Below, piece after piece: positions 6,892 through 25,546 of a stretch of DNA of 37,072 bases (positions are counted from its first letter, which is position 1; every line of letters begins with the position of its first letter). This DNA comes from Flaviaesturariibacter aridisoli (GTDB lineage Bacteria > Bacteroidota > Bacteroidia > Chitinophagales > Chitinophagaceae), in the NCBI RefSeq assembly GCF_004343705.1, contig NZ_SKFH01000046.1:1-37072 (forward strand), read 5' to 3'. The notes below the pieces were generated by a model. It searched no databases. It was not told the DNA's origin and saw only the letters and a program-made list of their open reading frames with translations. A program made the translations under genes and the position numbers.

Positions 6892-6928
6892 CCGTAGAAA
6901 TACGGAGTCAAATTCCGTATTAATACGG
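6892..6928. promoter_or_regulatory. Paired palindromic operator-like site A
   Basis: CCGTA-GAAA-TACGG (6892-6905), a 9-bp spacer, then CCGTA-TTAA-TACGG (6915-6928). Both 14-mers are perfect inverted repeats and their centres are 23 bp apart. The site ends 55 bp before the ATG at 6984. A weak -7 box TACCTTAC follows at 6953-6960, which would put the site in an activator-like position. Confidence 0.55.
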
Positions 6929-6983
6929 AGGCGGCGGGCCGAAGAGCTTGCGTACCTTACCGGTTCACCAAATATTTTATTTT

Positions 6984-7676
6984 ATGGACCAGGATCAACT
7001 GAACTTCCACACGATGATGGGCAAGCTGAAAGCGCACTTCCAGGGACATAGGTCCGCGTGGTCGAACGAACCACTGCTGACCGACCCGGTAGCGACCCTG
7101 TTAGCGCTCCACGACCGCATCGAAGCCGCCGCCAGCGCCCAGGAGGGGGGCAAGATCGCGGCGTTTTCCGCCAAAGACGCGCTCTTCGCCGAAGCGGCCG
7201 TAGAAACGGATAAGCTGGCCACCACCCTGCGCACCTTCGCGCGCCGTGCCGCCGACCCCGTACTGCTCAAGGCCATGGACCTGTCGCTCCGCGACTTTAA
7301 AACCGGCGCCCAGGCCGACCGGGTACGCCTGATGAACCGGGTGCTGGCCGAAGCCGAAAGCCGCCTGGCGCACCTCGCGCCCTACCGCATCGACGCAGCC
7401 CGGCTGGCCGCACTGAAGACCCTGCTCCACCAGGCCGCCGACCAGCACGACGACGGCCACGAGCAGCGCACCCACAGCACCGTCGCCACCGGCCGCCTCG
7501 CCGACCTGCTGGCCGAAGCGCGCACCCTGCTCGAAGGCCTCGACGACGATGTGCCTACGTTTATCGACGACGCCGAGTTCGTTACGGCCTACTTCGTCGC
7601 CCGCCGCATCACCGACCGACGCGCCACCCGCCCGGCGGAAGCACCCGCTGAGGCCGGAGGGAGAACAAGAGATTGA
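6984..7676 (+). CDS. Helical hypothetical protein (about 230 aa)
   Basis: I chose the ATG at 6984 (MDQDQLNFHTMMG) over an in-frame codon 36 bp upstream, because that one lies beside the likely promoter box. The product is Ala/Leu/Arg-rich and almost wholly alpha-helical, with no signal peptide or membrane segment, so it is probably cytoplasmic. The late segment FIDDAEFVTAYFVARRITD resembles the end of a common uncharacterised family of helical proteins in Bacteroidota; this match is from memory. No function is known. The last few codons are supplied by the octamer repeat array that continues downstream, so the C-terminus (GGRTRD) may be recent. Operator-like site A is upstream. Confidence 0.75.
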   Translation: MDQDQLNFHTMMGKLKAHFQGHRSAWSNEPLLTDPVATLLALHDRIEAAASAQEGGKIAAFSAKDALFAEAAVETDKLATTLRTFARRAADPVLLKAMDLSLRDFKTGAQADRVRLMNRVLAEAESRLAHLAPYRIDAARLAALKTLLHQAADQHDDGHEQRTHSTVATGRLADLLAEARTLLEGLDDDVPTFIDDAEFVTAYFVARRITDRRATRPAEAPAEAGGRTRD

Positions 7677-7771
7677 GAGGAAGAGAGAACGTGAGAACGA
7701 GAGGAAGAGAGGAAGAGAGAACGAGAGGAAGAGAGAACGAGAGAACGAGAGAACCAGAGAACAAGAGAACA
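7660..7771. repeat. Octamer tandem array AGAGAACG/AGAGGAAG
   Basis: Fourteen consecutive 8-bp units follow the pattern AGAG(AAC or GAA)N. It begins inside the end of the upstream gene and runs past its stop. The variants AGAGAACG and AGAGGAAG are interleaved. All purine on one strand except C. Confidence 0.85.
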
Positions 7772-7862
7772 AGAGGTGCGGCGGTTGCAGCCGGTTTTTG
7801 CGCCGGGCGCGGCTTTCCGGGGGTTCTCCGGTGGTTCGGGGAGGCCCGGCAGCGGGCCGGCC

Positions 7863-7899
7863 GCGTAGAAATACGCTTCGAAATACCGTATTTCTTCTC
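7863..7899. promoter_or_regulatory. Paired palindromic operator-like site B (orphan)
   Basis: GCGTA-GAAA-TACGC (7863-7876), a 9-bp spacer, then CCGTATTTCTTCTC (7886-7899), whose right half is degenerate. Spacing equals site A. The outer pair of the first palindrome is G-C where site A has C-G. A promoter-like TTACTTTG lies at 7923-7930, but no ATG-initiated gene follows. Confidence 0.5.
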
Positions 7900-7950
7900 T
7901 TGTGGGGGAGTCCCGGAGAGGTTTACTTTGTCTTCGCTCCAATTACATAG

Positions 7951-7974
7951 GGTTCCGGCCGCAGGGCCGGAACC
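7951..7974 (+). other. Hairpin just downstream of orphan promoter B
   Basis: A perfect 10-bp stem (GGTTCCGGCC / GGCCGGAACC, loop GCAG) would lie near the 5' end of any transcript from the TTACTTTG box at 7923. From here to 8260 I see only GC-rich hairpin repeats and no credible gene. Confidence 0.4.
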
Positions 7975-7977
7975 GGG

Positions 7978-8120
7978 TTTCACCCCAACCCCCTCGCCCG
8001 CGGTGGGGGTTCCATACCTTTCTCTGTCGGAAACAGGGTCCCGCGTACACCCGGGATCAGCCACGCCCCCGCAAGGGGGCGTTTTTGGCCCCACCCCAAC
8101 CCTCCCCGAAGGGGAGGGAG
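7978..8120. repeat. Two CCCC-hairpin family copies
   Basis: Copies at about 7978-8015 (CACCCCAACCCCC, then a GGTGGGGG arm) and 8092-8120 (CCCAACCCTCCCC / GGGGAGGG) share the layout of other hairpins in the window. Confidence 0.5.
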
Positions 8121-8200
8121 CGCAAACGCAACGCACAAAGGCTGCGCTGAGCGCGGGAAGCCCTCGTTCGGAAAAGATCCCAGTACCGCCCGATCGGAAG

Positions 8201-8230
8201 AGATCCCGTTCGCAGGCGAACGGGATGACG
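8201..8230. repeat. Extragenic palindrome AGATCCCG..CGGGATGACG, copy 1
   Basis: Arms ATCCCGTTCGC and GCGAACGGGAT flank a 2-nt loop and are followed by GACG. A second copy at 27462-27491 differs by a compensatory T-to-A change in both arms, so the hairpin structure is maintained. Confidence 0.65.
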
Positions 8231-8260
8231 ACGGGCGCCATGGAAGAATAATAAAAGAAG

Positions 8261-8281
8261 AGGGCGGCCGAAGGCCGCCCT
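8261..8281 (-). terminator. Terminator of the Gfo/Idh gene
   Basis: Perfect 9-bp stem AGGGCGGCC / GGCCGCCCT with a 3-nt loop, followed on the minus strand by a pyrimidine- and T-rich run (CTTCTTTTATTATT). It lies 82 bp past the stop at 8363. Confidence 0.7.
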
Positions 8282-8362
8282 GTCAAAGGGAAGAATGCTG
8301 TTGCTCCCCTGCCGCTTGCCGGCGAATGTCAGCGCAAGCCGTGGCCGGCAGATCGCGCCTGG

Positions 8363-9349
8363 TCAGGCCTTCCGCTTACCCGTCAGCCCTTCCATCAGTT
8401 GCAGCACCGCCACCCCGTCTTCGGCGGGTGCCGGGTTGGGGCCGCGGCCCAGGAAGTGGCCGGTTACGGCCGCGATCATCGGCTCCTGCACGTGCGCCAG
8501 CGGCGGGAAGTCGAAGCGGGCCGACACCGTGCCGTCGAAGCGCTCCAGCAGCAGCGGCTGCGCGGCGAACACGGCGCAGGAAAGACGCCCGTTGTCGCCC
8601 GTAAACACAAGCCGGTCGCGTTTTTCGGCTGCACCGAAGCGCCAGCTGCCCTCCAGGAGGATGCCGCCCGGGTAGCGCGCGGTGCCGGCGGTGGTATCGT
8701 CGGCGGCATAGTGGCCGTAGCTGTTCCACGACAGGCCGGCAGCCGCTTCGGGGGCGCCGAAGAAGTAGTGCAGCAGGTCCAGCGCATGGGGCGCCAGGTC
8801 GTAAAAGAGGCCGCCGCCCGATTCGGCGGGGTCGAGGCGCCAGGGCAGCTCCGTGCGGGCCACCAGGCCGCCCTCGTGGGGTTCCCACAGCTCCAGCCGC
8901 AGGTGGCGCACGCTGCCGATGGCGCCGGCGTCGAGCAGCTCCTTCACTTTGCGAAACAGCGGCTGCGCCCGGCGGTAGTGCGCCACGCAAAGGGGCAGGC
9001 CGGCCGCGCGGGCCGCATCGGCCATACGGGCCGCGGCGGCGGCGTCGAGGGCCATCGGCTTTTCCACGTACACCGGCTTGCCGGCCGCCAGGGCCTGCAG
9101 CGTGTAGGCTTCGTGGTAGCGCGGCGGCGTGGCGATGTACACCGCGTTCACGGCCGGGTCGGCCAGCAGGTCTTCGGCCCGGTCGTACCAGCGGGGCACG
9201 CCGTGGCGCGCGGCATAGTCGGCCGCTTTGGCCCCGTTGCGGCGCATCACCGCCGCCAGCCGCGACCCCGGCACTTTCCCAAATGCCGGCCCGCTCTTTA
9301 CTTCCGTTACGTCGCCGCAGCCAATGATGCCCCAGGAGATGTCGTTCAT
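8363..9349 (-). CDS. Gfo/Idh/MocA family NAD(P)-dependent oxidoreductase
   Basis: The 328-residue product matches the usual family length. The N-terminal Rossmann fold has the dinucleotide loop WGIIGCGDV (residues 6-14), then the IATPPRYHE segment and the conserved EKP motif with Lys97, the usual catalytic lysine. The C-terminal alpha/beta domain has the conserved D-x-x-x-H pattern (YDLAPHALDLLHYF). Family members oxidise or reduce sugars, inositols and related polyols with NAD(P). The substrate cannot be read from the sequence and no sugar operon is adjacent. It is a single-gene unit with its own terminator. The promoter box is only 4 nt from ATG, suggesting a leaderless mRNA. Confidence 0.92.
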   Translation of the reverse strand: MNDISWGIIGCGDVTEVKSGPAFGKVPGSRLAAVMRRNGAKAADYAARHGVPRWYDRAEDLLADPAVNAVYIATPPRYHEAYTLQALAAGKPVYVEKPMALDAAAAARMADAARAAGLPLCVAHYRRAQPLFRKVKELLDAGAIGSVRHLRLELWEPHEGGLVARTELPWRLDPAESGGGLFYDLAPHALDLLHYFFGAPEAAAGLSWNSYGHYAADDTTAGTARYPGGILLEGSWRFGAAEKRDRLVFTGDNGRLSCAVFAAQPLLLERFDGTVSARFDFPPLAHVQEPMIAAVTGHFLGRGPNPAPAEDGVAVLQLMEGLTGKRKA

Positions 9350-9353
9350 GCAG

Positions 9354-9361
9354 CGAAGCTA
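9354..9361 (-). promoter_or_regulatory. -7 box TAGCTTCG, 4 nt before ATG
   Basis: On the minus strand TAGCTTCG ends 4 nt before the start codon at 9349. It matches TAnnTTTG with one change, and the same octamer occurs upstream of dnaN. Confidence 0.55.
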
Positions 9362-9367
9362 GGAGCG

Positions 9368-9407
9368 TAATCCATTAATCGGTTAATCGATCAACCGGTT
9401 AATTCCT
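9368..9407. repeat. Octamer array TAATCGGT-like
   Basis: Five 8-bp units (TAATCCAT, TAATCGGT, TAATCGAT, CAACCGGT, TAATTCCT) lie just upstream of the oxidoreductase promoter. They resemble the arrays at 22452-22483 and 22580-22611. Confidence 0.65.
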
Positions 9408-9479
9408 GCGCCCGGGATGACCATGCTTCCTTGTCCCGCTGAGCGCAGCCGAAGCGCCCGTCACCCCATTACGAAGCCG

Positions 9480-9637
9480 TGTAAAAGGGCCACCCGGAGG
9501 CAGCCCTTGTCCCTAAAGCCGAAAACCTGTTATTGTTGAAGGAAGGGCAGCACCCGCAGCCCTTGGGGCGCCCGCACGAAGCGGCGTACGCCGGCGGCAG
9601 AAGGGAGTCCTTGGTTAGATGACGAACGTTCCCGATC
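9480..9637 (-). ncRNA. Candidate small RNA of about 150 nt
   Basis: On the minus strand a promoter (TTG, 20 bp, TACCTTCG) is followed by about 150 nt with several short GC-rich self-complementary segments. It ends in an AAGGGC / GCCCTT hairpin running into TTTT at 9483-9508. No ATG-initiated reading frame lies between. An in-frame TTG beside the box could encode a 57-residue peptide, which I consider less likely. I did not recognise an RNA family: 4.5S/SRP motifs were considered and not convincingly found. Confidence 0.35.
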
Positions 9638-9640
9638 AAA

Positions 9641-9671
9641 CGAAGGTACCCGGCACTGCTGGCGGGAACAA
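9641..9671 (-). promoter_or_regulatory. Promoter of candidate small RNA
   Basis: Minus-strand TTG (9671-9669) and TACCTTCG (9648-9641) are separated by 20 bp, close to the Bacteroidota layout of TTTG, 19-20 bp, TAnnTTTG. Among the few promoters where I looked for a -33 element, this has the best two-element match. Confidence 0.5.
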
Positions 9672-9693
9672 TACCCTGCGCGCGGTATTTTGC

Positions 9694-9791
9694 GGGAGGC
9701 GGGAGGCGGGAGGCGGGAGGCGTAAGGCGGGAGGCGGGAGGCGGGAGGCGGGAAGCGTGAGGCGTCAGGCGTGAGGCGTCAGGCGGGAAAC
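9694..9791. repeat. Heptamer tandem array GGGAGGC/GTSAGGC
   Basis: Fourteen uninterrupted 7-bp units: four GGGAGGC, GTAAGGC, three GGGAGGC, GGGAAGC, alternating GTGAGGC and GTCAGGC, then GGGAAAC. The AGGC tail is conserved and the first three bases vary. Confidence 0.9.
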
Positions 9792-10030
9792 CGGGGATCG
9801 CTGTTTTCCTCCGCCCGGCCTCCGCGCCATAGGCCGCTCCGGCCGGCGGCGCGCTGCGTCGTCTCTCGCAGCCTCCATAATAAACGACCTTCCAACCTAT
9901 AGTACTGCTTAGGTGCTCGCTGGTAGAGAAACAGTCTCTGTGTACTCTGCGAAAACGCGCTGCGCCCTCTGCAGCCTGCCCCGCCAAAGGCGGGGAGAAA
10001 CCTTGCCCTGTGGGAAATGCTAAACTCCGC

Positions 10031-10038
10031 TATCTTAG
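10031..10038 (+). promoter_or_regulatory. -7 box TATCTTAG upstream of 10064
   Basis: TATCTTAG matches TAnnTTTG except near its end and leaves a leader of about 25 nt. No clear -33 element was seen. Confidence 0.4.
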
Positions 10039-10063
10039 TCGTACCAAAATCCAGACTGTTCCG

Positions 10064-10879
10064 ATGCGAAAAACCATTTTCCTGGGTCTTTCGGGCCTCG
10101 CCCTGACCCTCGGCGCCGGCGCCCAGTGCCCCACGCCGCTTACCTTCCAGGTACCTTCTTCCTTCAGTATTTGCAACGGCGCGCAAACGCAGCCCCTCCT
10201 CTTCGGCAGCAACGACGCGTCGGCCACTTTTGCGTGGAGCAACAGTAATCCTTCCATCGGCCTCGCTCCATCCGGCAGCGACGACATTGCGCCCTTCGCC
10301 GCCGTCAACAGCGGCAGCACGGAGGTAACGGCCACGATCACCGTTACGGCTACTGCGGGGCCCTGCGTCAGCGCGCCGCAAAGCTTTACCATCAGCGTCC
10401 GGCCCTCACCGGCCACGCCCTCGCTGAGCGTGCAGGGCAACCTGCTGCAAAGCAGCGGCGGCGGCACGAGCTATGCCTGGTACTACAACGGCGCGCCGGT
10501 CGACGGCGTCACGGGCCCCTCCTTCGGGGCAACGCTAAGCGGCAACTACGCGGTGCAGGTAGTGGGTGGCAACGGCTGCGCCAGCGCGGTGTCGCCGGCG
10601 CTGAACCTCTTGATCACGGGGGTATCCGCACTGCGCGCCGGCTCGGGCCTCCAGCTGGCGGCCAACCCCGTGCGCGGGCAGGCACTGCTGCTGCAAACGG
10701 GCCCCGCCCGCAATTATACGGTTTGGGTACTGACCTCCGGCGGCGCGCTGCTGCAGTCGCAGCGCCTCCGCGGCGGCGGCGCCATCGACCTGTCGCGCTA
10801 CCCTGCGGGGGTGTACCTGCTTCTCGTCCGCGACGAGCGCAGCGGCGCGCTGTGGCAGGAGCGGGTGGTGAAGGCGTGA
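10064..10879 (+). CDS. Secreted Ig/PKD-like protein with T9SS-type C-terminal domain
   Basis: I chose the ATG at 10064 because it opens a clean signal peptide (MRKTIFLGLSGLALTLGAGAQ); the longer frame starts inside the promoter. The mature protein is about 250 residues. It has one Ig/PKD-like beta domain, a short segment of the YAWYYNGAPVDG type as in gliding-related surface proteins, and a tail with NPVRG, YPAGVYLLLVRD and a final basic strand (ERVVKA). This tail closely resembles that of the protein encoded at 13965-16964, so both are probably cargo of the same secretion system. Its stop lies 7 bp from the convergent caspase-gene stop. No catalytic residues were recognised. Confidence 0.85.
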   Translation: MRKTIFLGLSGLALTLGAGAQCPTPLTFQVPSSFSICNGAQTQPLLFGSNDASATFAWSNSNPSIGLAPSGSDDIAPFAAVNSGSTEVTATITVTATAGPCVSAPQSFTISVRPSPATPSLSVQGNLLQSSGGGTSYAWYYNGAPVDGVTGPSFGATLSGNYAVQVVGGNGCASAVSPALNLLITGVSALRAGSGLQLAANPVRGQALLLQTGPARNYTVWVLTSGGALLQSQRLRGGGAIDLSRYPAGVYLLLVRDERSGALWQERVVKA

Positions 10880-10886
10880 GGCCCCC

Positions 10887-13760
10887 CTACTGCACCCCGA
10901 TCGGGAAGTCAGGCACATTCGGCGGCACCACCGACGTGGGATGCTGGCGGCCCCTGGTGAGTTCTTTCACGCGCTCGGAGATGTAGGCGTCGAGGCTTTT
11001 CACCGTGATCTTGGTCTTGCCGGGAACGGAGGCCTTGCCGCCGAGGCCTTCGAGGAGCGCCATTGTAAAGGCGCCGTGCTCCCAGGAAGGATCTTCGAGC
11101 GAATATTCCTTGCCGGTGCTGCTGGTGAAGGTGATGGCACCGTTCTGCGTGCTCGACAGCTCGTTCACGATGGCGTTGATGTCGGCGCCGCCGCGGCGCT
11201 GGGCCGTGCCCATCACGTTGCCCGAATGGCAGGCGTCGATGAATACCACCACCTTGCCGGCGATGTTGCTCACGGTCTGCTTCAGCTCTTCGAAGTTGAG
11301 GCAGGTGGAACGCAGGCGGTTCACGTCGGCGCCCACGGGCAGCATGTAAAAGACGCCGTTGTTGTCGTTGATGCCGTGGCCGGCGTAAAAGATCATCGCC
11401 ATATCGCCCTGGCCGGTCTGCTCCTGGATCCACTGGAGGCCGTCCTGGATGGCCTCGCGGGTGGCGGCAGCGTTGGTGTATTGCTTCACCACCACGTCGC
11501 CGTACAGCTTGCCTTTTTGTTTCTGCATCCCGGCTACGAAGGCGTTGGCGTCCTTGTCGGCGTAATTGAGCTTGTACTCGGGGTTCTGGTACTGGCTGAT
11601 GCCGATGGCCAGCACGTAGAGCTTGGGTTTGCGCACGAACTCGTCGGCGCCGCGCTCAGCGGCCTTGAAGTGGAGGAATACGTTGGCTTCGGGACTGAGG
11701 CCGTTGTCGTTTTCGGCCAGCAGCGTCACGGTGCAATCGCCGCCGGGCAGGGTCACGTTCACGCTGTATTTGTTGGAAGGCTGCACCTTGATGCCGCGCT
11801 CCAGCGCCACGGGCCGCCCGTTGACGAGCACCTTCACGCTTTTCACCGGCGCGTCTTCGGGGGTGTTGACGCTGTAGTCGATGCGCACGGTCTCGCTGCT
11901 CACGGTGCTGCCGCCGGCGGGGTTGAGGATGCTGATGGTGGGCGGCAGCTTGCTTTGCACGGCGGCGGCGGTGGCGGTAGTGCGGCGGCGCTCGTCGCGG
12001 CTGTTGGCGAAGGTGATGGCCTGGTTCTCGTCGTAATTCTCAAACACGGCGTCGATGATGTCGGGGCGGTAGTAGGCTTCGCGGAAACGCGACACGGGGA
12101 AGAAGGCCGGCGTGCCGTCCTTGCCCTTGTTGATGTGCCAGCCGAGCAGGTCTTCAGCGCCTGCGGAGGCGTCGTAATAGCCCGAGGGTGTAAAGAGCAC
12201 CCAGCGCGTTTTGTCGTTGTGGAGGAAGAAGGCGAGCAGCTCCTTGCCGTTGGTCATGTTGTACCAGCGGATGGTGCCGTCGTTGAGCTGCACCAGCACC
12301 ACGCGGTCGTTGCCGCTAATGTTGACGCCCTTGCAGTTGGCGGGCAGCGTTGCTTTCCACACCTGCTGGCCGCGCACGTCGGAACAATAGAGGTTCCAGC
12401 TGCCGCCGATCACCACGTAGTTGCCGTCGGAGCTGACGTCGACGCCCACGCAGGATTCATAATTGTTCATAAAGGTCACCTCGCGCCCGTTGATGCTGGG
12501 TCGCTTGTCTACGCTGCCTTTGTCGGCGCGGGTGCCCTGGGCTTCGGTCACGGCCGGCTCGGTCTGGCTTTCCTTCTGCTGCAGGGTGCGGCCCGGCACT
12601 TCGAAGCTCAGGTCGGGCTGGTGGTAGGGCTGGAAGCCGAAAACGGCGCCGTTGCGGCCCACGCGGAAGGATCCCTTGCGGGTGCCCGAAAAGTCGTTGT
12701 TGTTGCTGTTGTGGTACCAGCCGGTGGTATGGGCCGCCGTCAGCACCGCCAGGTCGGGGTGCGAGCCGAGTACGGCGAGGCCGCCGTTGGGCAGGGCCTT
12801 CATGTCGGCAACGCTGTTGTTGAGCAGGGCCAGGTCGCGGAAGGAGCCCCTGCCGGCGTCTTCCCAGCAGCGGATCACGAAGTGGGCGTTGTTGTCGGCG
12901 TCCACGATGCTGTAGTGCGAGCCGCCGTAGAGGCGCTTGCCGTCGGCGGAGAAGCACACCTTTCCGAGGCGCTCGCCGCGCACATTGGCTTCGCCGAGCG
13001 CGGGGCGATAGAGCACGGTCAGGTCGGTGCCGCTGCGCACCTCCACGTCGGGACTGTCTTCGTAGGCTACGGCCACCAGCTTCCCGTTGGGGCTGAAAGC
13101 CACGCTGAAGGGTTCGGCGCGGCTGTCGTGGCGGGCGGTGGTCTGCAGGGCAAAGTCTTCGGAATAGAGGCGGATGAGGCCGTCCTCGCAGGTAGTCACC
13201 AGGCGGCCCTTCGCGTCGAAGGAGAGGTGGTACACGTCGCCTTCGTAGCTGCCCAGCACACGGGCCAGCGACCAGTTGGCGGTGCGCACGAGGGCGACGC
13301 CCTTGTTGCCGCCCATGCCCACGGCGAGCCACTGGCCGTTGGGGGAAAATTCAATTTCGTTGGCCATCCCCGCGAGGCCGGTAACGCGCTGGCGGATGTG
13401 GCCGGTCTGCGTTTCGATGAGGTAGAGGCAGTAGTCGTCTTCCCATTCGTAGCCGGTGCGCCCGCCTACTACGGCGAGCTTGCCGTCGGCGCTGAGGGCG
13501 CAGCTATAGAGCTTGCCTTCGCTGGCGCCTTCCACCGGCACGCGAAACACCTGCAGCTGGCGGCCCGTGGCGGCATCCCAAAGGCGGGCCGTCCGGTCGT
13601 CGGAGGAAGTAAGCAGGTATTTGCCCGCGGCGTCGGTGGCGATGCGCTTGCCGGCGGCGGAGTGCATCCCGGTTTCAAGGCGCAGGATCGGCTGGGTCGT
13701 TTGCGCGGATGCGGCGAGGCAGCTAAGCACTCCGAAGAGGAAGAACAGGCAGGATCTCAT
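10887..13760 (-). CDS. Exported WD40 repeat - caspase (peptidase C14) fusion protein
   Basis: The ATG at 13760 starts a signal peptide (MRSCLFFLFGVLSCLAASAQ), giving 957 residues. The first 400 or so contain WD40-like blades (LLTSSDDRTARLWDAATGRQ, VAFSPNGKLVAVAYED). More propeller-like sequence follows, then an Ig-like strand-rich segment (about 610-700). From about 710 comes a caspase domain with catalytic His795 in YAGHG and Cys844 in DACHSG. The Asp before that Cys suits the basic-residue preference of bacterial and metacaspase-type enzymes. Many WD40-caspase fusions lack a signal peptide; this one has one and lacks a T9SS tail, so it probably acts in the periplasm. The target is unknown. 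It lies between two T9SS cargo genes. Confidence 0.9.
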   Translation of the reverse strand: MRSCLFFLFGVLSCLAASAQTTQPILRLETGMHSAAGKRIATDAAGKYLLTSSDDRTARLWDAATGRQLQVFRVPVEGASEGKLYSCALSADGKLAVVGGRTGYEWEDDYCLYLIETQTGHIRQRVTGLAGMANEIEFSPNGQWLAVGMGGNKGVALVRTANWSLARVLGSYEGDVYHLSFDAKGRLVTTCEDGLIRLYSEDFALQTTARHDSRAEPFSVAFSPNGKLVAVAYEDSPDVEVRSGTDLTVLYRPALGEANVRGERLGKVCFSADGKRLYGGSHYSIVDADNNAHFVIRCWEDAGRGSFRDLALLNNSVADMKALPNGGLAVLGSHPDLAVLTAAHTTGWYHNSNNNDFSGTRKGSFRVGRNGAVFGFQPYHQPDLSFEVPGRTLQQKESQTEPAVTEAQGTRADKGSVDKRPSINGREVTFMNNYESCVGVDVSSDGNYVVIGGSWNLYCSDVRGQQVWKATLPANCKGVNISGNDRVVLVQLNDGTIRWYNMTNGKELLAFFLHNDKTRWVLFTPSGYYDASAGAEDLLGWHINKGKDGTPAFFPVSRFREAYYRPDIIDAVFENYDENQAITFANSRDERRRTTATAAAVQSKLPPTISILNPAGGSTVSSETVRIDYSVNTPEDAPVKSVKVLVNGRPVALERGIKVQPSNKYSVNVTLPGGDCTVTLLAENDNGLSPEANVFLHFKAAERGADEFVRKPKLYVLAIGISQYQNPEYKLNYADKDANAFVAGMQKQKGKLYGDVVVKQYTNAAATREAIQDGLQWIQEQTGQGDMAMIFYAGHGINDNNGVFYMLPVGADVNRLRSTCLNFEELKQTVSNIAGKVVVFIDACHSGNVMGTAQRRGGADINAIVNELSSTQNGAITFTSSTGKEYSLEDPSWEHGAFTMALLEGLGGKASVPGKTKITVKSLDAYISERVKELTRGRQHPTSVVPPNVPDFPIGVQ

Positions 13761-19787: not shown

Positions 19788-19832
19788 GGTCGAGTACCCG
19801 AAATAAGCCGGTAAATGTACCGCAAGGCCTAC

Positions 19833-19867
19833 ATTATTCAATATTCAATAGCTATTATTCACTATTC
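19833..19867. repeat. Heptamer array ATTATTC/AATATTC, right arm of an inverted pair
   Basis: Five 7-bp units ending 3 bp before the stop codon of the aspartyl protease gene (19871). With 19746-19787 it could fold over a 45-bp loop. Confidence 0.75.
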
Positions 19868-19870
19868 AAT

Positions 19871-21055
19871 CTAGAGGATGCTTTTCACCATAAACCGCAC
19901 CTCCTTCAGCTCGCCGTTGCGGCGGTACACCACCTGCACCGGCTCGCTGGTCTGTGTGAGCAGGGCTTTGTAGGCGCTGAGGCTCTGGCTGAAATTTCGG
20001 TTCACGGCCACCACCACATCGCCCTCCTTCAGCCCGGCCTTTTCGGCCGGCGAGCCCTTGGCCACGTCGCCGATCTCGATCACCCCGTTGATAAGGTAAA
20101 GCTCCAGGCCGCAGTAGCCGTATTCGAAGGGATCATCGAAGTGGCTGTTGGGCACGAGGTAGATCTCGCTGCGGTCGTAGTTGATGATGGCGTTGAAGCG
20201 GCGCAGCAGGTCGGAGCCGATGAGGCCGCCCAGCGTGGGATAGGACGTAACGTTGAAGGTGTCTTTGAACACGTATACCGGCACGTTGCGGAAGCGGTAG
20301 GGCCCGAGGCGCACCTGCTGGATGACGGTCATGTGCATGTCTACCTTGCCGCCCATGCCCTCGGCCTCCTTGGCAAAGAGGCGGCGCCCCTTTTTGAGAA
20401 AGCCGCTGTCGCGGATAAAGTCGGTGGAGAACATCAGGTTGAGGCCGGCGCCCATGTCGTAGAGAAAACGCGTTTCCACGGCGCGGTTGTCGCGCACGCG
20501 CAGCGACTGCACCGGCAGGGTATTGATCTGGGGGTGGAGCATAAAGCCGCCGCGGGGGTAGCGGATGGCCCCCTTCGTCCAGAACTCGATCCACGACGAG
20601 TCGTAGTTGACCTTCACCACGTAGCGGCTCAGCACCGAGTAGCCGACGATGCCGTCGATCCGCTCGCCGTAGATGCTGGTAAGCAGGCTGTAATCGTTGA
20701 CGTGAAAGGACATGCTGTCGATGCTGAGGCCTGGCACGTGGAGCGACTGCCCGTGGAGGAAGGAGACGTTCTTGATGCCGCCGATGCCGCGGATGGTGCG
20801 GTTGGAGGGCGTGGGCTTCAGGTTGAAGTGTTCCACCATCGCGGAGTCGAGCGAGATGCCGCCCGAGCCGGAGTCGAGGATGAAGTTGAGCGTATCGGGG
20901 AAGTTGCTGAAGCGCGCATTGAATACGATCAGGCCGCCGGTGAACTGCTGAAAGCGTACCCGCGTGATAAAGCGCGAGGGCTCTACGAATTCTTCCTGCG
21001 CACCCGCGGGCAGCAGGTGGCAGCTAAGCAGCAGGAGGAAAAGGGCTCGGCGCAT
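19871..21055 (-). CDS. Exported aspartyl protease-like protein with C-terminal PDZ domain
   Basis: A signal peptide (MRRALFLLLLSCHLLPAGAQ) starts the 394-residue product. Two retropepsin-like lobes follow, with the first catalytic-type Asp61 in FILDSGSGG and the second, Asp200, in FLYDMGAG. The canonical second motif is D-T/S-G, so Met at that Thr position may reduce activity. Each lobe ends in the hydrophobic-Gly signature (DGIVGYSVLSR, GGLIGSDLLRR). A PDZ domain occupies about 310-390 (GSPAEKAGLKEGDVVVAVN). Expected location is the periplasm; the substrate is unknown. It is likely transcribed with, or just ahead of, the M16 pair. A candidate -7 box lies near 21109-21116. Confidence 0.88.
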   Translation of the reverse strand: MRRALFLLLLSCHLLPAGAQEEFVEPSRFITRVRFQQFTGGLIVFNARFSNFPDTLNFILDSGSGGISLDSAMVEHFNLKPTPSNRTIRGIGGIKNVSFLHGQSLHVPGLSIDSMSFHVNDYSLLTSIYGERIDGIVGYSVLSRYVVKVNYDSSWIEFWTKGAIRYPRGGFMLHPQINTLPVQSLRVRDNRAVETRFLYDMGAGLNLMFSTDFIRDSGFLKKGRRLFAKEAEGMGGKVDMHMTVIQQVRLGPYRFRNVPVYVFKDTFNVTSYPTLGGLIGSDLLRRFNAIINYDRSEIYLVPNSHFDDPFEYGYCGLELYLINGVIEIGDVAKGSPAEKAGLKEGDVVVAVNRNFSQSLSAYKALLTQTSEPVQVVYRRNGELKEVRFMVKSIL

Positions 21056-21128
21056 GATGGTGGTTTGTGAGGAAGACAGCTCGGGCGGCCTAAAGGCTGC
21101 CTAGGGCAAATTACTTAAACAAGTAGAT

Positions 21129-21198
21129 AAGTGGGAAGTCGGAAGTCGGAATTGGATGGACGGCAACACTGCTTCGGACTTCCCACTTCCGACTTCGA
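21129..21198. repeat. Inverted pair of heptamer arrays (AAGTCGG / ACTTCCG)
   Basis: AAGTGGG, AAGTCGG, AAGTCGG, AATTGGA (21129-21156) face GCTTCGG, ACTTCCC, ACTTCCG, ACTTCGA (21171-21198). They could form a stem over a 14-bp loop. They sit between the divergent starts at 21055 (-) and 21226 (+). Confidence 0.8.
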
Positions 21199-21211
21199 TA
21201 CTTCCCTGTCG

Positions 21212-21219
21212 TACCTTTG
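21212..21219 (+). promoter_or_regulatory. -7 box TACCTTTG, 6 nt before mqnC ATG
   Basis: An exact TAnnTTTG match ending 6 nt before ATG 21226. A TTG inside this box is in frame but is taken as promoter, not a start codon. Confidence 0.7.
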
Positions 21220-21225
21220 CGGCCG

Positions 21226-22350
21226 ATGAACCTCTCCCCCCTTTACGACAAGGCCCTGGCCTTCGGCTTCCTCACCGTGGAAGAAGGCATGGCGCTCTTT
21301 GAGCACGCGCCCCTCACCGACCTGATGAACATTGCCGACAGCCTGCGCCGCCGGCAGGTGCCCCACGGCAAGGTCACCTGGCAGATCGACCGCAACGTGA
21401 ACACCACCAACGTGTGCATCGCCAACTGCAAGTTCTGCAACTTCTACCGCATCCCCGGCCACCCCGAGGCCTATATCACCGATATGGATACCTACCGGCG
21501 CAAAATCCGGGAAACCATCAAATACGGCGGCGACCAGCTGCTGCTCCAGGGCGGCCACCACCCCGGGCTCGGCCTGCAGTTTTACGTGGACACCTTCCGC
21601 GCCATCAAGGCCGAATTCCCCGACATCCGGCTGCACACCCTCGGCCCACCCGAGGTGGCGCACATCTGCAAGCTCGAGGGCATGAGCCACCACGACGTGC
21701 TGCGGGCGCTGAAAGAAGCCGGTATGGACTCGCTCCCCGGCGCGGGCGCCGAGATCCTGGTAGACCGCGTGCGGCGCCTCATCTCCAAGGGCAAGTGCGG
21801 CGCCGACGAATGGCTGGCCATCATGCACGAAGCCCATAAGCTGAATATCACCACCTCGGCCACCATGATGTTCGGCCACGTGGAAACGATCCGCGAGCGC
21901 TTCGAGCACCTCGTGCGCATCCGCGACGTGCAGGCCCTGAAGCCGGAAGAAGCCAAGGGCTTCCTGGCCTTCATCCCCTGGACCTTCCAGGACGTAGACA
22001 CCCTGCTGACGCGCATCCGCGGCGTGCACAACCTCACCACGCCCGAAGAATACATCCGTATGATCGCCCTGAGCCGCATCATGCTGCCCAACGTAAAGAA
22101 TATCCAGGCTTCCTGGCTTACCGTGGGCAAGCAGACCGCCCAGTTGTGCCTCCATGCCGGCGCCAACGATTTCGGCTCCATCATGATCGAAGAGAACGTG
22201 GTGAGCGCCGCCGGCGCGCCGCACCGCTTTACGAGCCGCACCATCCAGGATGCGATCCGCGAGGCCGGCTTCGAGCCGCAGCTCCGCAACCAGCAATACG
22301 AGTGGCGCGAGCTGCCCGCCGCTGTCGAAGAGCAGGTCATCGATTATTAG
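21226..22350 (+). CDS. mqnC: Cyclic dehypoxanthinyl futalosine synthase (radical SAM), menaquinone pathway
   Basis: The 374-residue product has the radical-SAM cluster motif C-x3-C-x2-C in NTTNVCIANCKFCNFYR, followed by QLLLQGGHHPGLG, LGPPEV, GMDSLPGAGAEIL and TTSATMMFGH, all typical of the MqnC/MqnE/CofH group. The length and motif spacing fit MqnC. MqnC closes dehypoxanthinyl futalosine into its cyclic form in the futalosine route to menaquinone, the respiratory quinone of most Bacteroidota. MqnE and CofH are related alternatives; MqnC is preferred on overall sequence. It is cytoplasmic and monocistronic here, with its own terminator and a promoter predicting a leaderless mRNA. The other mqn genes are not in the window. 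Confidence 0.93.
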   Translation: MNLSPLYDKALAFGFLTVEEGMALFEHAPLTDLMNIADSLRRRQVPHGKVTWQIDRNVNTTNVCIANCKFCNFYRIPGHPEAYITDMDTYRRKIRETIKYGGDQLLLQGGHHPGLGLQFYVDTFRAIKAEFPDIRLHTLGPPEVAHICKLEGMSHHDVLRALKEAGMDSLPGAGAEILVDRVRRLISKGKCGADEWLAIMHEAHKLNITTSATMMFGHVETIRERFEHLVRIRDVQALKPEEAKGFLAFIPWTFQDVDTLLTRIRGVHNLTTPEEYIRMIALSRIMLPNVKNIQASWLTVGKQTAQLCLHAGANDFGSIMIEENVVSAAGAPHRFTSRTIQDAIREAGFEPQLRNQQYEWRELPAAVEEQVIDY

Positions 22351-22359
22351 CAAGGCAGG

Positions 22360-22391
22360 CCAATCAGGTAACTGGTTTATTGGTAAAAAGG
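22360..22391 (+). repeat. Partial octamer array after mqnC
   Basis: CCAATCAG, GTAACTGG, TTTATTGG, TAAAAAGG: weak 8-bp periodicity related to the TTAATTGG/TCTATTGG arrays nearby. Confidence 0.45.
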
Positions 22392-22422
22392 GTCTTTTAC
22401 GCGGCAACATTCGCGGAACAGG

Positions 22423-22451
22423 AAAGGGTCGTCGTAAGGCGGCCCTTTTTT
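22423..22451 (+). terminator. Terminator of mqnC
   Basis: A 9-bp stem with one G-T pair (AAAGGGTCG / CGGCCCTTT) and an 8-nt loop, continued by TTT. It lies 73 bp past the stop. Confidence 0.75.
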
Positions 22452-22611
22452 AATTGGTTGATCGGTCTATTGGTTAATTGGTAAAGAACCTGTTACGGAC
22501 GCTTTTAATAAAACCGGGCGCCTGGTTGCTGTGGCCTTCCAAAACCCCGACGAAAAGCAAGCTGGGCAGGTCCTGGTTACCAATAGACCAGTAGACAAAT
22601 AGACCAATGGA
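22452..22611. repeat. Inverted pair of octamer arrays (TATTGGTT / CCAATAGA)
   Basis: Four units at 22452-22483 (AATTGGTT, GATCGGTC, TATTGGTT, AATTGGTA) face four at 22580-22611 (CCAATAGA, CCAGTAGA, CAAATAGA, CCAATGGA). The right arm is the reverse complement of the left-arm consensus. The 96-bp interior is not repetitive. Confidence 0.75.
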
Positions 22612-22619
22612 CACGAAAA

Positions 22620-22655
22620 CCGTATTTACCGGCATAAATCATAGTAGAAATACGG
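22620..22655. promoter_or_regulatory. Paired operator-like site C, upstream of the two-component operon
   Basis: CCGTATTTACCGG (from 22620) and GTA-GAAA-TACGG (ending at 22655) are outward-facing copies of the motif in site A. Centres are about 22 bp apart. The site ends 55 bp before ATG 22711, as at site A. The inner half-sites are degenerate. Confidence 0.45.
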
Positions 22656-22710
22656 TTGTTGGTATGGGAAATTGTGCGGATTTTGGCGTTTCAAATTAAT
22701 TCCACTGCTT

Positions 22711-23043
22711 ATGAATCATGAAATCGACCTCCAGACGGCCATCGACATGACCACGCTGTACCGTACCAACATCGGCAAAATGATGTCCGACGAGTTCCAG
22801 GGCGCCATGCCGCTCAGCGAAACATTCGACATTTCGGCGATCACTACCCTCCTGCAGCAAAACCCGACGCAGATCCGCATCTACTACGGTATGAATGCCG
22901 ACAACAGCATCCACGCCGTGCTCGTGGGTGTAGACGACAAAGGAAACGATATGTTCCCGGGCCAGCCCGAAGACGGCAAGATCATGGAAATGGCTCACCG
23001 TTGCCCGGTAACTTGCCCTCCCGCTTCCTTACTCAATCAATAA
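22711..23043 (+). CDS. Small hypothetical protein with C-terminal RCPxxCPPxSLLN motif
   Basis: The 110-residue product starts at ATG 22711 (MNHEIDLQTAIDM). An N-terminal helical half is followed by a beta-rich half (QIRIYYGMNADNSIHAVLVGVDDKG) and a Cys/Pro tail HRCPVTCPPASLLNQ. Tails of the RCPxxCPPxS type occur in many small Bacteroidota hypothetical proteins, recalled from memory; their role is unknown. The paired cysteines might bind metal or form a disulphide. There is no signal peptide. It is the first gene of the apparent operon with the 7-TM protein (6-bp gap), kinase and regulator, and has operator-like site C upstream. Confidence 0.75.
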   Translation: MNHEIDLQTAIDMTTLYRTNIGKMMSDEFQGAMPLSETFDISAITTLLQQNPTQIRIYYGMNADNSIHAVLVGVDDKGNDMFPGQPEDGKIMEMAHRCPVTCPPASLLNQ

Positions 23044-23049
23044 CGAGCA

Positions 23050-23700
23050 ATGAACGCGTACGCATTCATTTTTGCCTCTTCGTTTTCGATCATTATCGCT
23101 GTGCTGCTCGGTGCGTTCCGCATGCACCAGGTAGCACGGCGATATATCCCATTCCTCCTGTTTCTTTTGATGGGGCTTCTGAACGAAATAGCCAGCGAGA
23201 TCACGGGGCGCATCTGGCAAACGAATGCACCGAACTGTGACATTTACACCTTAGTGGATTCACTGGTCCTGATTTGGATGTTTTACGAATGGCGGCTCTT
23301 CCGAAAAACATTGGCGTATGTACTTGGGTCGATGCTGATCGTTATTTGGGTTTCCGATACATTGATTTGGGGAAACCTGATGGCGTTCAGCTCGCGGTTC
23401 AGTGTCTCCTATGCTTTGTTGACGGTTCTGATGAGCGTGCAGTATATCAATCACCTGATTGTTACCGAACAGCGGCTCACCCTGAAAAACCCGGATTTCC
23501 TGATCTGCATCTGCCTCGTTCTGTTCTACACCGCATCGGCAATCGTGGAAATCTTCTGGTTCTTCGGTTTTGACAACAATCCGACATTTGTAGGCCGCGT
23601 GTATATCATCATCCCTGTAGTTAACCTTCTTGTCAATCTAACTTACGCACTCGCCGTTTTATGGATCCCCAGGAAACCCGCCTTTATTACGCTATCCTGA
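23050..23700 (+). CDS. Seven-transmembrane protein of unknown function
   Basis: The 216-residue product has seven hydrophobic segments: FIFASSFSIIIAVLLGAF, IPFLLFLLMGLLN, YTLVDSLVLIWMF, YVLGSMLIVIWVS, YALLTVLMSVQYI, FLICICLVLFY to WFFGF, and YIIIPVVNLLVNLTYALAVLW. No enzymatic motif was seen. Its 3' end overlaps the kinase gene by 40 bp, so the two are translationally coupled. Since the kinase has only one membrane segment and no sensor domain, the 7-TM protein is a reasonable candidate for the missing input module; this is inference. Its base composition is visibly more AT-rich than the kinase and regulator genes, as is common for membrane proteins. Confidence 0.8.
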   Translation: MNAYAFIFASSFSIIIAVLLGAFRMHQVARRYIPFLLFLLMGLLNEIASEITGRIWQTNAPNCDIYTLVDSLVLIWMFYEWRLFRKTLAYVLGSMLIVIWVSDTLIWGNLMAFSSRFSVSYALLTVLMSVQYINHLIVTEQRLTLKNPDFLICICLVLFYTASAIVEIFWFFGFDNNPTFVGRVYIIIPVVNLLVNLTYALAVLWIPRKPAFITLS

Positions 23701-24407
23701 TTGCCTGCGGCGTCGTTGGTCTGATCATCGTCTTCTTTATTATTTCCATCATCCGACAGCAGCGCCGCAACCTCGTGCTGCACCGCCAGAACATGCTGGC
23801 CGAGATCACCACCCTCGAGAAGGAGCGCGCCCGCATGGCCCGCGACCTGCACGACGAGCTGGCGCCGGTGCTGGCCGCCGTCAAGATGCGGATCAACTCT
23901 TTTGCCCTTACCGACGCCGAAGACCAGGAGGAGCTCGGGCGCACTTCGGCCCACATTGACAGCCTGATGAAGCGGATCCGCGAGATCACCTTCGACCTCA
24001 TGCCCTCCTCGCTGGAGCGCGCAGGCTTCGCCGCCGCCGCCCGCGAATTCCTCGAATACATCCGCCGCAGCGGCCGCCTCGACATCCGCTTCGATTGCCC
24101 CCAACCCGTGGCCGTAGACGAGCGCAAGGCCGTCAACCTCTACCGCATCCTGCAGGAAGTGATGCAGAACACCCTCAAGCACGCCGAGGCCCGCCGCTTC
24201 GTGGTGTCGCTGAAGCAGGAGAAAAAAGAGCTCGTGCTCGCCACCACCGACGACGGTAAAGGCTTCGACTACGAAAAGCTTCTCGCCCAGAACGGCGGCA
24301 TCGGCCTCCGCAGCCTGCGCAGCCGTGTGGAGATCATGAACGGCGCCTTCTTTTGCGAAAGCCGCAAAGGGAAGGGCACATCTTATATCTTTAGAATCCC
24401 GATTTAA
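23661..24407 (+). CDS. Sensor histidine kinase (HisKA_3 / NarL-partner type)
   Basis: The 248-residue product has one membrane helix (about residues 9-32), then a dimerisation helix with the phospho-accepting His64 in ERARMARDLHDELAPVLAAVK. The ATPase domain shows the N box (LQEVMQNTLKH, Asn170), G1 (DDGKGFD, Asp198) and G2 (GGIGLRSLRSRVEIMNG). It lacks any PAS, GAF or periplasmic sensor region, which is short for the family. Signal input is therefore probably supplied by a partner, and the overlapping 7-TM gene is the obvious candidate. It should autophosphorylate His64 and transfer to the regulator encoded 11 bp downstream. Confidence 0.93.
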   Translation: MDPQETRLYYAILIACGVVGLIIVFFIISIIRQQRRNLVLHRQNMLAEITTLEKERARMARDLHDELAPVLAAVKMRINSFALTDAEDQEELGRTSAHIDSLMKRIREITFDLMPSSLERAGFAAAAREFLEYIRRSGRLDIRFDCPQPVAVDERKAVNLYRILQEVMQNTLKHAEARRFVVSLKQEKKELVLATTDDGKGFDYEKLLAQNGGIGLRSLRSRVEIMNGAFFCESRKGKGTSYIFRIPI

Positions 24408-24418
24408 CGCAACCAGCT

Positions 24419-25129
24419 ATGAACCAGACCGACGACAGGACCGGCGAAGACGCGCTCGCGCCCGGTGCCGCCGAAGACAGACCCATCCGCCTCCTCATTG
24501 CCGACGACCACGAGATCTTCCGCGACGGCTTCCGGGTGATGCTCCGCAAAAACCCCGACCTGGAGCTGGTAGGCGAGGCCGCCGACGGCGAACACCTCCT
24601 GGCCATGGTGGAATTCTGCAAGCCCGACGTCGTCATCACCGATATCCGCATGCCCAACATAGACGGCGTGGCCGCCACCCGCCTGCTGCAGCACAGCCAC
24701 CCCGACCTCCCGGTGATCGGCCTCTCCACCTACGACGAGGAGCAGGTGATCGTGGACATGCTCGAGGCCGGCGCCCGCGGCTACCTGCTCAAGAACGCCT
24801 CCAAGGAGGAGATCTTTACCGCCGTAGACATGGTACACCGCGGCGAGGTCTATTTCTGCGCTTCTACCTCGCCCCGCCTCGCCGAGCTTATTGCCAAAAG
24901 CTCCTTCAACCCCTTCCGTCGCCGCCCCTCCGCCGAGATCAACGACCGCGAAAAAGAGATCATCCGTCTCATCTGCCAGGAATTTTCCAGCAAGGAGATC
25001 GCCCTGCAGCTCAACAACAGCGTCCGCACCGTGGAATCCTACCGCGACCGCCTGCTCGACAAGATCGGCGCCCGCAACGTGGCCGGCCTCGTGGTGTATG
25101 CCATCAAACATGGCATCTACAAGCCCTAG
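24419..25129 (+). CDS. NarL/LuxR-family response regulator
   Basis: The 236-residue product has an unusual acidic N-terminal extension of about 20 residues. The receiver domain has the acidic pocket Asp29/Asp30, phospho-acceptor Asp75 (VVITDIRMP), switch Ser103/Thr104 and Lys125 (GYLLKN). A LuxR-type helix-turn-helix follows at about 175-230 (NDREKEIIRLICQEFSSKEIALQL, RTVESYRDRLLDKIG). It is the cognate partner of the kinase encoded just upstream. Promoters it controls are unknown. The paired palindromes at 6892, 22620 and 25510 are plausible targets, including its own operon, but nothing in the sequence proves this. Confidence 0.93.
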   Translation: MNQTDDRTGEDALAPGAAEDRPIRLLIADDHEIFRDGFRVMLRKNPDLELVGEAADGEHLLAMVEFCKPDVVITDIRMPNIDGVAATRLLQHSHPDLPVIGLSTYDEEQVIVDMLEAGARGYLLKNASKEEIFTAVDMVHRGEVYFCASTSPRLAELIAKSSFNPFRRRPSAEINDREKEIIRLICQEFSSKEIALQLNNSVRTVESYRDRLLDKIGARNVAGLVVYAIKHGIYKP

Positions 25130-25376
25130 CCCCCTGTCCCCCAAAGGGGGCGCTTAGGTCGATCTTTCCTTGCAGAAAGGATCGTTTACTAAAGTTGTCG
25201 ATACAAAAGCCCCGACGGTACCGCCGGGGCTTTTTACTGCAGAATTTTCAATACAATATTCAAACAGGCCTGCTATTAAAACTCGGGAATTAACGCTGGA
25301 ACATCATCGATTGGAAACATGATGGAAACATGAAAAACAGCCTCGATCTATGTGCCCCCTTTGGGGGACAGGGGGC
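25130..25376. repeat. Inverted pair of CCCC-hairpin repeats with terminator between
   Basis: The left copy (from 25130, CCCCCTGTCCCCC then AAAGGGGGCGCTTAG) starts directly after the response regulator stop. The right copy (to 25376) is its inverse and both have GATC at the inner edge. The interior carries the terminator at 25205. The second pair at 28741-28891 has an unrelated interior. Confidence 0.65.
25205..25234 (+). terminator. Terminator of the two-component operon
   Basis: A 10-bp stem (AAAAGCCCCG / CGGGGCTTTT) with a small inner GC-paired loop, continued by TACT. It lies 75 bp past the regulator stop. Confidence 0.8.
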
Positions 25377-25509
25377 CGGGGTGGGGCAGAAAAAAGCCCT
25401 GGCGAAAGCGCCGGGGCGGTGATACGGATCAGATAGCCAAACAAAAACCTACGCAGTAGAGACTGTGTTGATATGCTGCAAAGTACCGGAAGCGAATCGG
25501 TCTGTACAA

Positions 25510-25546
25510 GAGAGGAAATACGGCAAATTTTAGCGTAGAAATACGG
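25510..25546. promoter_or_regulatory. Paired operator-like site D, upstream of PAP2 gene
   Basis: GAGAG-GAAA-TACGG (25510-25523), a 9-bp spacer, then GCGTA-GAAA-TACGG (25533-25546). Centres are 23 bp apart, as in sites A and B. It ends 50 bp before ATG 25597. A -7-like CAAGTTTG follows at 25565-25572. Confidence 0.5.

What the first reader, a model, noticed from the sequence alone, without database searches (positions are those of the whole stretch)
6892..25546. A four-copy paired palindromic operator (CCGTA-N4-TACGG, 23-bp spacing)
Sites at 6892-6928, 7863-7899, 22620-22655 and 25510-25546 each hold two related 14-bp motifs with a spacer of 9 bp (8 at the third), putting centres 22-23 bp apart, close to two helical turns. 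CGTA-GAAA-TACG is shared by three. The first palindrome of site B swaps the outer C-G for G-C, so inverted symmetry is kept. Three sites end 50-55 bp before an ATG (6984, 22711, 25597). This looks like a regulon with dimer pairs binding one face of DNA. The NarL-type regulator encoded at 24419 is one candidate; I know of no published assignment for this motif.
Basis: partly seen in the sequence, partly recalled or inferred. Interest (0 to 1): 0.75.

Follow-up and report, generated by a model that had tools for sequence, protein, structure and literature searches.

The report
Two-component operator echoed genome-wide
The four double DNA sites look like landing pads that a bacterial sensor system uses to switch on its own genes, and the same short palindrome is also scattered, for reasons still unknown, through hundreds of other places in this genome.

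Summary
The four sites are real and beyond chance, and have two layers. (1) Operator layer: in 13 of 16 assembled sites (here and in relatives) a TTG (-33-like) abuts the promoter-proximal 14-mer, and in 11 of 16 a second TTG lies 41-42 bp from its start, where a Bacteroidota -7 box would be (null 1.8% and 3.5%): palindromes near -43 and -66, activator geometry. Such a palindrome precedes the g22711-g23050-kinase-NarL operon at 7 of 16 operon heads seen, in 7 of 11 species, some with few other copies. Site D points to the minus strand, away from the ATG at 25597. (2) Dispersed layer: CCGTA-N4-TACGG is not four-copy. It occurs 240 times in this genome (control 10), nearly as densely inside genes as between them, and is partly conserved in one relative but not detectably in another. 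Three of 17 congeners share a clear excess; two of these (G151, G148) show no ortholog of the regulator, so it does not explain the dispersal, whose cause stays open. Exact 23-bp composites are rare: 6 genome-wide, control 0, three in this window.

The parts
6892..6905 (+). Site A, distal 14-mer CCGTAGAAATACGG (perfect palindrome outside the 4-bp centre)
6915..6928 (+). Site A, promoter-proximal 14-mer CCGTATTAATACGG
6953..6960 (+). Weak -7-like box TACCTTAC, 38 bp from start of proximal 14-mer; no TTG after the palindrome
6984..7676 (+). Gene downstream of A: 230 aa, no Pfam family and no NCBIfam match near its cut-off; two paralogs (30-31%) in the sampled part of the genome, one of them with motif sites on both sides
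7863..7876 (+). Site B, distal 14-mer GCGTAGAAATACGC
7886..7899 (+). Site B, promoter-proximal 14-mer CCGTATTTCTTCTC (left half only), TTG at 7900-7902, TACTTTGT (TAnnTTGY) at 7924-7931
22620..22633 (+). Site C, distal 14-mer CCGTATTTACCGGC (spacing 22; half palindrome)
22642..22655 (+). Site C, promoter-proximal 14-mer TAGTAGAAATACGG, TTG at 22656-22658, GATTTTGG at 22679-22686; a palindrome at the same place in 6 further species
22711..23043 (+). First gene of the two-component operon, 110 aa, no Pfam or NCBIfam family; found in 11 of 18 genomes of the genus (counting this one)
23050..23700 (+). 216 aa, hydrophobic in appearance, no Pfam or NCBIfam family (second operon gene; membrane sensor by inference)
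23661..24407 (+). Sensor histidine kinase, HisKA_3 + HATPase_c
24419..25129 (+). NarL-type response regulator, Response_reg + GerE; best candidate for the protein that binds the operators
25478..25485 (-). TACTTTGC (TAnnTTGY) -7-like box of the D promoter, read on the minus strand
25507..25509 (-). TTG (-33-like) abutting the proximal D site, minus strand
25510..25523 (-). Site D, promoter-proximal 14-mer in the minus direction (CCGTATTTCCTCTC); both members and the spacer nearly identical in G151
25533..25546 (-). Site D, distal 14-mer (plus strand GCGTAGAAATACGG)
25597..26337 (+). PAP2-family phosphatase gene next to D; the D promoter boxes point away from it

Best explanation
The four window sites are activator operators of the two-component system encoded at 22711-25129. 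The NarL-type regulator (24419), phosphorylated by the HisKA_3 kinase (23661), binds as a dimer to the 14-bp palindrome n-CGTA-N4-TACG-n whose edge touches a TTG -33 box, centred near -43; a second dimer binds 22-23 bp upstream (near -66) on the same DNA face and stabilises it. C gives positive autoregulation of the operon, A drives gene 6984, B an unassigned plus-strand transcript, and D an unassigned minus-strand transcript. Shown by sequence: the sites, the spacing, the promoter skeleton and the conservation at part of the operon heads. Inferred: the identity of the binder, activation rather than repression, cooperativity, and the exact transcription starts. The several hundred other copies in the genome are a second layer with partial, position-specific conservation towards one relative. 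For the most part they do not sit at promoters, and their function is not established.
For: Promoter skeleton: TTG immediately after the proximal 14-mer in 13 of 16 sites, TTG at 41-42 in 11 of 16, TAnnTTGY-like (5 of 6) at 37-38 in 10 of 16; nulls in intergenic sequence of this genome 0.018, 0.035, 0.014 (the 17th site, upstream of a paralogous regulator, lacks the first TTG and was dropped). Operon-head palindromes of at least 14 bits at a like distance from the first gene in G000, G157, G158, G147, G154, G161, G156. In G161 two of the three exact CCGTANAAATACGG in 5.9 Mb lie within 0.7 kb downstream of the regulator ortholog. D is nearly identical in G151 over about 43 bp inside an alignment of 75% identity. 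Exact pairs: 6 in this genome against 0 in the control. |d| = 23 is the most enriched spacing: 6 counts, from 4 pairs, against 0.36 expected, all intergenic; no other spacing up to 60 exceeds 2.
Against: G151 keeps D and many motif copies but shows no ortholog of the regulator (best 41%) or of gene 22711; its assembly is 92% complete. Of 16 operon heads, 9 lack a strong site: G150, G153, G155, G004 and five G157 paralogs, although the regulators of G150 and G153 and of four of these G157 copies are 50-54% identical to 24419. The recognition helix RT[VI]E-x-[YH]R does not discriminate: G153, G150, G004 and one G157 paralog without a head site have it too. The composite pattern for a single promoter site gave 15 matches in 18 genomes against 6 in the control, a modest excess, and in G161 only one of its four lies at this operon. 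Site A lacks the TTG. Several of the 16 sites are orthologs of one another, and orientation was chosen by eye, so the nulls overstate significance. The pair composite over all 18 genomes is 11 against 3 in the control.
Confidence: 0.57

Rival explanations
1. A genome-wide DNA-binding protein other than the 24419 regulator (nucleoid- or chromosome-structuring, or another NarL paralog) recognises CCGTA-N4-TACGG everywhere; the two-component operon and the window pairs are just some of its targets.
For: 240 and 254 perfect copies in G000 and G151; aligned sites, mostly in genes, kept in G151 beyond their flanks; G151 and G148 have the copies without a found 24419 ortholog; 39 related regulator matches in G000, one of which has a motif site just upstream.
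Against: In species with few copies the sites lie at this two-component operon. Distances between sites look random and orientation does not follow GC skew. No candidate protein was identified.
Confidence: 0.26
2. The dispersed copies are a drive-type sequence such as an uptake signal or a HIP-like palindrome created and kept by substitution, and the window sites merely resemble it.
For: Similar density in and between genes, all reading frames, differences mainly by substitution, some copies in terminator-like hairpins, lineage-limited excess.
Against: Does not explain the fixed distance to promoter boxes or the operon-head sites. Density (70 perfect in 1.21 Mb) is far below the 1000-2000 per million given in PMC4390886 for alternate HIPs and said there to be like HIP1 (passage).
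Confidence: 0.1
3. The sites work as nucleic-acid hairpins (CCGTA stem, GAAA loop), for example terminators or single-strand signals.
For: A few copies sit 25-27 bp after genes, three of them with flanking complementary G/C bases and a T run.
Against: No compensatory covariation: symmetric positions are complementary 52 against 57 expected (inner) and 74 against 70 expected (outer). Most copies are inside genes.
Confidence: 0.05

Closest known systems
NarL/FixJ (LuxR-type) response regulators with HisKA_3 kinases, such as NarL, UhpA, LiaR
   Same: Receiver + GerE domains, HisKA_3/HATPase_c partner, palindromic operator next to the -35/-33 region (positions recalled for the classical members).
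   Different: CGTA-N4-TACG palindrome abutting a Bacteroidota TTG box; four-gene operon with two orphan proteins; NCBIfam equivalog cut-offs for NarL, UhpA, MctR and the other equivalogs shown are not reached.
Bacteroidota promoters with TAnnTTTG or TAnnTTGY -7 boxes
   Same: B, D and their relatives carry TAnnTTGY, described as motif SM5 in Flavobacterium psychrophilum, or boxes near it (PMC9723704, two passages).
   Different: Here the box is paired with an adjacent palindrome; whether an alternative sigma factor reads it is not known.
HIP1, highly iterated palindrome of cyanobacteria
   Same: Dispersed palindrome at high excess in some genomes of a clade and low in others.
   Different: 14 bp with a 4-bp centre, much lower density, no methyltransferase link tested, also used as a promoter operator (for HIP).
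Chromosome-wide palindromes bound by MatP, SlmA or Noc (recalled, no call)
   Same: 12-14-bp palindromes inside and between genes.
   Different: Copy number here is higher, spread looks even in the 1.21 Mb sampled, and no such protein was tested.

Membership tests
NarL/FixJ response regulator | Receiver domain plus GerE/LuxR-type HTH | tested here: met
   Pfam Response_reg 94.6 bits (cut-off 30.2), GerE 43.8 bits (cut-off 23.5)
NarL/FixJ response regulator | Adjacent HisKA_3-type histidine kinase | tested here: met
   HisKA_3 38.6 bits (cut-off 24), HATPase_c 46.3 bits (cut-off 26.4) for 23661-24407
NarL, UhpA, MctR, GacA equivalogs | NCBIfam equivalog cut-off | tested here: not met
   Best MctR 146.6 of 300 bits; GacA family 136.6 of 280; NarL 117.2 of 250; UhpA 91.6 of 258
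Activator operator of this regulator | Palindrome at fixed distance from -33/-7 boxes | tested here: met
   13 of 16 and 11 of 16 sites; misses A, G147, G154 (first TTG) and A, three other pairs, G156 (second)
Activator operator of this regulator | Autoregulatory site conserved at the operon head | tested here: inconclusive
   7 of 16 heads, 7 of 11 species; without a strong site: G150, G153, G155, G004, five G157 paralogs
Activator operator of this regulator | Physical binding and activation | not testable with these tools
   Needs DAP-seq, gel shift or reporter
Operator regulon (all copies) | Enrichment upstream of genes over coding sequence | tested here: not met
   232 of 277 sites coding; densities 0.223 against 0.26-0.32 per kb
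Highly iterated palindrome (HIP) | Strong excess in coding and non-coding DNA | tested here: met
   240 against 10 in the control; 70 perfect against at most 12 for any other permutation of CCGTA, 56 of 70 coding
Highly iterated palindrome (HIP) | Cognate DNA methyltransferase | not tested
   No methyltransferase search was made
DNA uptake sequence | Preferential uptake in transformation | not testable with these tools
   Bench assay needed
Polar chromosome signal (KOPS/AIMS-like) | Orientation bias with replication | tested here: inconclusive
   r = 0.09 between site orientation and local GC skew, 277 sites; origin and contig order unknown

The most novel reading that the evidence does not exclude
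One lineage of this bacterial family has spread a regulator's 14-bp recognition palindrome through coding and non-coding DNA to several hundred positions that are partly kept by selection. It would be a genome-scale DNA signal, for chromosome organisation, uptake or titration of the regulator, that shares its specificity with a two-component operator, and promoter operators would be set apart from this background by a second site 22-23 bp away.
Probability: 0.3. Interest if true: 0.85.

Novelty: new variant of a known kind. Interest (0 to 1): 0.6.

Why it matters
It gives a testable motif, promoter layout and candidate regulator for a four-gene two-component system whose first two proteins match no Pfam or NCBIfam family. 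It also exposes a dispersed, lineage-limited palindrome inside genes that looks constrained towards one relative. Uptake-type, HIP-type and chromosome-structuring signals are, as far as I recall, not described for this group; the top listings of eight paper searches showed none, but those lists were capped and the library is open-access only.

Tried and rejected
Hairpin reading: no covariation. Protein-level repeat: sites occur in all three frames and both orientations; the shortage in the same orientation fits the stop codon in one frame (inference). Insertion of a small element: no marked flank conservation around 136 sites, and aligned relatives differ mainly by substitutions, a few rows by gaps. 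Strand-polar signal: no correlation with GC skew. TA-type promoter box after sites in general: no clear enrichment at 36-39 (2 of 90 oriented intergenic sites at 38, mean 0.24 per offset). TTG at +14: 5 of 90 oriented intergenic sites (about 2 per offset on average) and 8 of 464 coding ones, no excess there. A comparable dispersed palindrome in other species: in 200-kb samples of G161 and G004 the best gapped palindromes have 5 copies. Regulator in G151 or G148 with a near-identical HTH: best 52% against 65% in G158. Small RNA from D: fold z-score -1.0 and no terminator flagged by the scan, so kept only as a note. Rfam: no match in the window. Conservation against G148 showed no excess: 5 of 22 sites with at least 13 of 14 bases kept, null 0.137. 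Four loci around sites in other genera (L315, L316, L317) or elsewhere in G161 (L109) were looked at without finding a regulator gene by eye.
Full report
Check of the observation. In the window, CCGTANNNNTACGG with up to one mismatch occurs 8 times against a mean of 0.88 in 100 shuffles. The outer C-G/G-C swap in B carries no weight, since symmetric positions of 136 sites vary independently.

The motif is genome-wide. The window is contig 46 of an 84-contig, 4.37-Mb draft genome. CGTANAAATACGG occurs 114 times there and its reversed control once; CCGTANNNNTACGG 240 times, control 10. In 1.21 Mb that I read (parts of contigs 1-5 plus the window) GTANAAATAC occurs 136 times. In the first 411 kb GTAGAAATAC is the 10-mer with the highest excess (42 against 0.8 expected). 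There are 70 perfect palindromes; the 4-bp gap is specific (70, other gaps 0-3) and so is the half-site (other permutations of CCGTA at most 12). A weight matrix gives 277 sites above 12 bits; the reversed matrix gives 24.

Most copies are not upstream of genes. With a simple gene finder of my own, 232 of 277 sites are coding and one lies at a contig edge; the density is 0.223 per kb in genes and 0.26 (tandem), 0.27 (divergent) and 0.32 (convergent) between genes; distances between sites look random (mean 4.2 kb). Coding copies occur in all frames and both orientations.

Phylogenetic range. Of 18 genomes of the genus, G000 (240), G151 (254), G148 (129) and G158 (32) show a clear excess of CCGTANNNNTACGG over their controls, G161 (14; control 6) a slight one and G154 (10; control 11) none; the other 12 have 0-6. 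Of 147 family genomes 27, counting this one, have any CCGTANAAATACGG; the largest other count is 13. Of 396 order genomes, a different draw, 53 have any; the largest other count is 7. In samples of G151 (91 kb) and G148 (200 kb) the same palindrome is the top gapped palindrome; in 200-kb samples of G161 and G004 it is not.

Conservation of dispersed copies. In strict alignments to G151 (101 kb, 80% identity) 13 of 17 sites are kept, site identity 0.91 against 0.77 in flanks, and 13 of 20 G151 sites are sites here. In looser alignments with more G151 sequence (142 kb, 73%) 14 of 27 are kept (14 of 29 in the other direction), and 13 of 27 have at least 13 of 14 bases identical against 13.5% for neighbouring windows; third codon positions are 0.70 identical in sites and 0.52 in flanks. 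Against G148 (98 kb), 5 of 22 are kept with no excess. So the copies look constrained over short times and turn over, mainly by substitution.

The pairs are special. At |d| = 23 bp the sampled sites show 6 counts (4 pairs) where 0.36 is expected, all between genes; no other spacing up to 60 has more than 2. Genome-wide, AAATACGG-N11-GTANNNNTAC occurs 6 times in G000, control 0: A, B and D of the window, and contigs 1, 29 and 34. Over all 18 genomes it is 11 against 3. The contig 1 and 29 pairs lie about 480 and 530 bp upstream of two similar 225-229-aa proteins. Three of six pairs fall in this 37-kb window, which also carries the two-component operon.

Promoter layout. Reading away from the pairs, a TTG follows the proximal 14-mer at once and a TTG or TTT lies near 41 bp. 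For 16 sites (A-D, three other pairs, D in G151, G157, G158, and the operon head in six relatives) TTG at +14 is found in 13, TTG at 41-42 in 11, a TAnnTTGY-like box at 37-38 in 10; nulls 0.018, 0.035 and 0.014. The rows are not independent and orientation was chosen by eye. TAnnTTTG is the sigma-A -7 consensus in Flavobacterium psychrophilum, and TAnnTTGY a second type, SM5 (PMC9723704, two passages seen). With a start about 50 bp from the first base of the 14-mer (inference), the palindromes are centred near -43 and -66. By this layout B reads plus and D reads minus, away from the PAP2 gene. A is the weakest case, without the first TTG.

Link to the two-component system. The operon 22711-23050-kinase-regulator has relatives in several species: the regulator is 50-63% identical in eight genomes (G157, G158, G153, G147, G150, G154, G161, G156), and gene 22711 has 16 matches in 11 of 18 genomes counting this one. 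I looked upstream of all 16 (first seen). Seven have a palindrome of at least 14 bits in the promoter region: G000, G157, G158, G147, G154, G161, G156; in G158 it is the middle of a perfect 40-bp palindrome. Nine do not: G150, G153, G155, G004 and five further G157 copies, three of which have weak sites of 8.5-12.1 bits within about 280 bp. Sites also lie downstream of the regulator gene in G157, G158, G147, G150, G154 and G161. In G161 two of its three CCGTANAAATACGG lie there. The recognition helices of the site-bearing orthologs are alike, but G153, G150, G004 and a G157 paralog without a head site share the same pattern, so this does not discriminate. I therefore think the 24419 regulator binds the operators and activates its own operon; this is inference from position, not a binding result.

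What does not fit. G151 and G148 have the dispersed copies, and G151 has a nearly unchanged D, but neither has a regulator above 41%, a 22711 relative or an HTH above 52%. Either the gene is missing from 92% and 85% complete assemblies twice, or another protein also reads the motif. The dispersed layer therefore remains unexplained.

Literature. Eight searches of the open-access library showed no description of this motif in the listings; the lists were capped at 6-20 papers and one search found no paper. I saw listings only, plus passages of PMC4390886 and PMC9723704. Positions for classical NarL-type activators and the MatP/SlmA/Noc comparison are recalled.

Noticed in passing
window 22711-25129: Four-gene two-component operon headed by an orphan 110-aa protein and a 216-aa probably membrane protein without Pfam or NCBIfam family; G157 carries six matches to the first gene and several paralogous regulators.
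   Followed up: partly
window 25390-25485, minus strand: Stretch downstream of the D promoter is well conserved in G151 and contains a stem followed by a run of U; possibly a short RNA, but the fold is not significantly better than shuffles and the terminator scan found nothing.
   Followed up: partly
window 6984-7676; L062 (G000 C2:245183-245812): Gene 6984 has two paralogs of about 30%; the one at C2:245183 has a motif site upstream (C2:245092) and one downstream (C2:246015), the latter with TTG at +14 and TACCTTGT at +37.
   Followed up: partly
L209, L215: Two similar 225-229-aa proteins of unknown function each have a 23-bp pair about 480-530 bp upstream on the same strand.
   Followed up: no
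G000 C1:45493, C1:230148; C3:91198: Motif copies form the loop and inner stem of terminator-like hairpins just after genes.
   Followed up: no
L199 (G000 C5:118909-119550): A second NarL-type regulator (45% identical to 24419) has CCGTATAAATACGC just upstream of its reading frame, with TTTC at +40 but no TTG at +14.
   Followed up: partly
G161 samples L124-L133: Other over-represented words, such as AACCTGTCAAC, in the sampled 200 kb.
   Followed up: no
G047: A genome of another genus in the family has 16 CCGTANNNNTACGG (control 4), most of them with centre TAAA; perhaps a regulon with the same motif.
   Followed up: no
L250 and L280 (JABDCF010000039.1): Two places of one Bacteroidetes contig carry an identical D-like pair, GTATTTCTACGC...TTTGCCGTATTT.
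   Followed up: no
window 7664-7780: Purine-rich repeated GAGAGAACGAGAGGAAG-like stretch just after gene 6984 and before site B.
   Followed up: no
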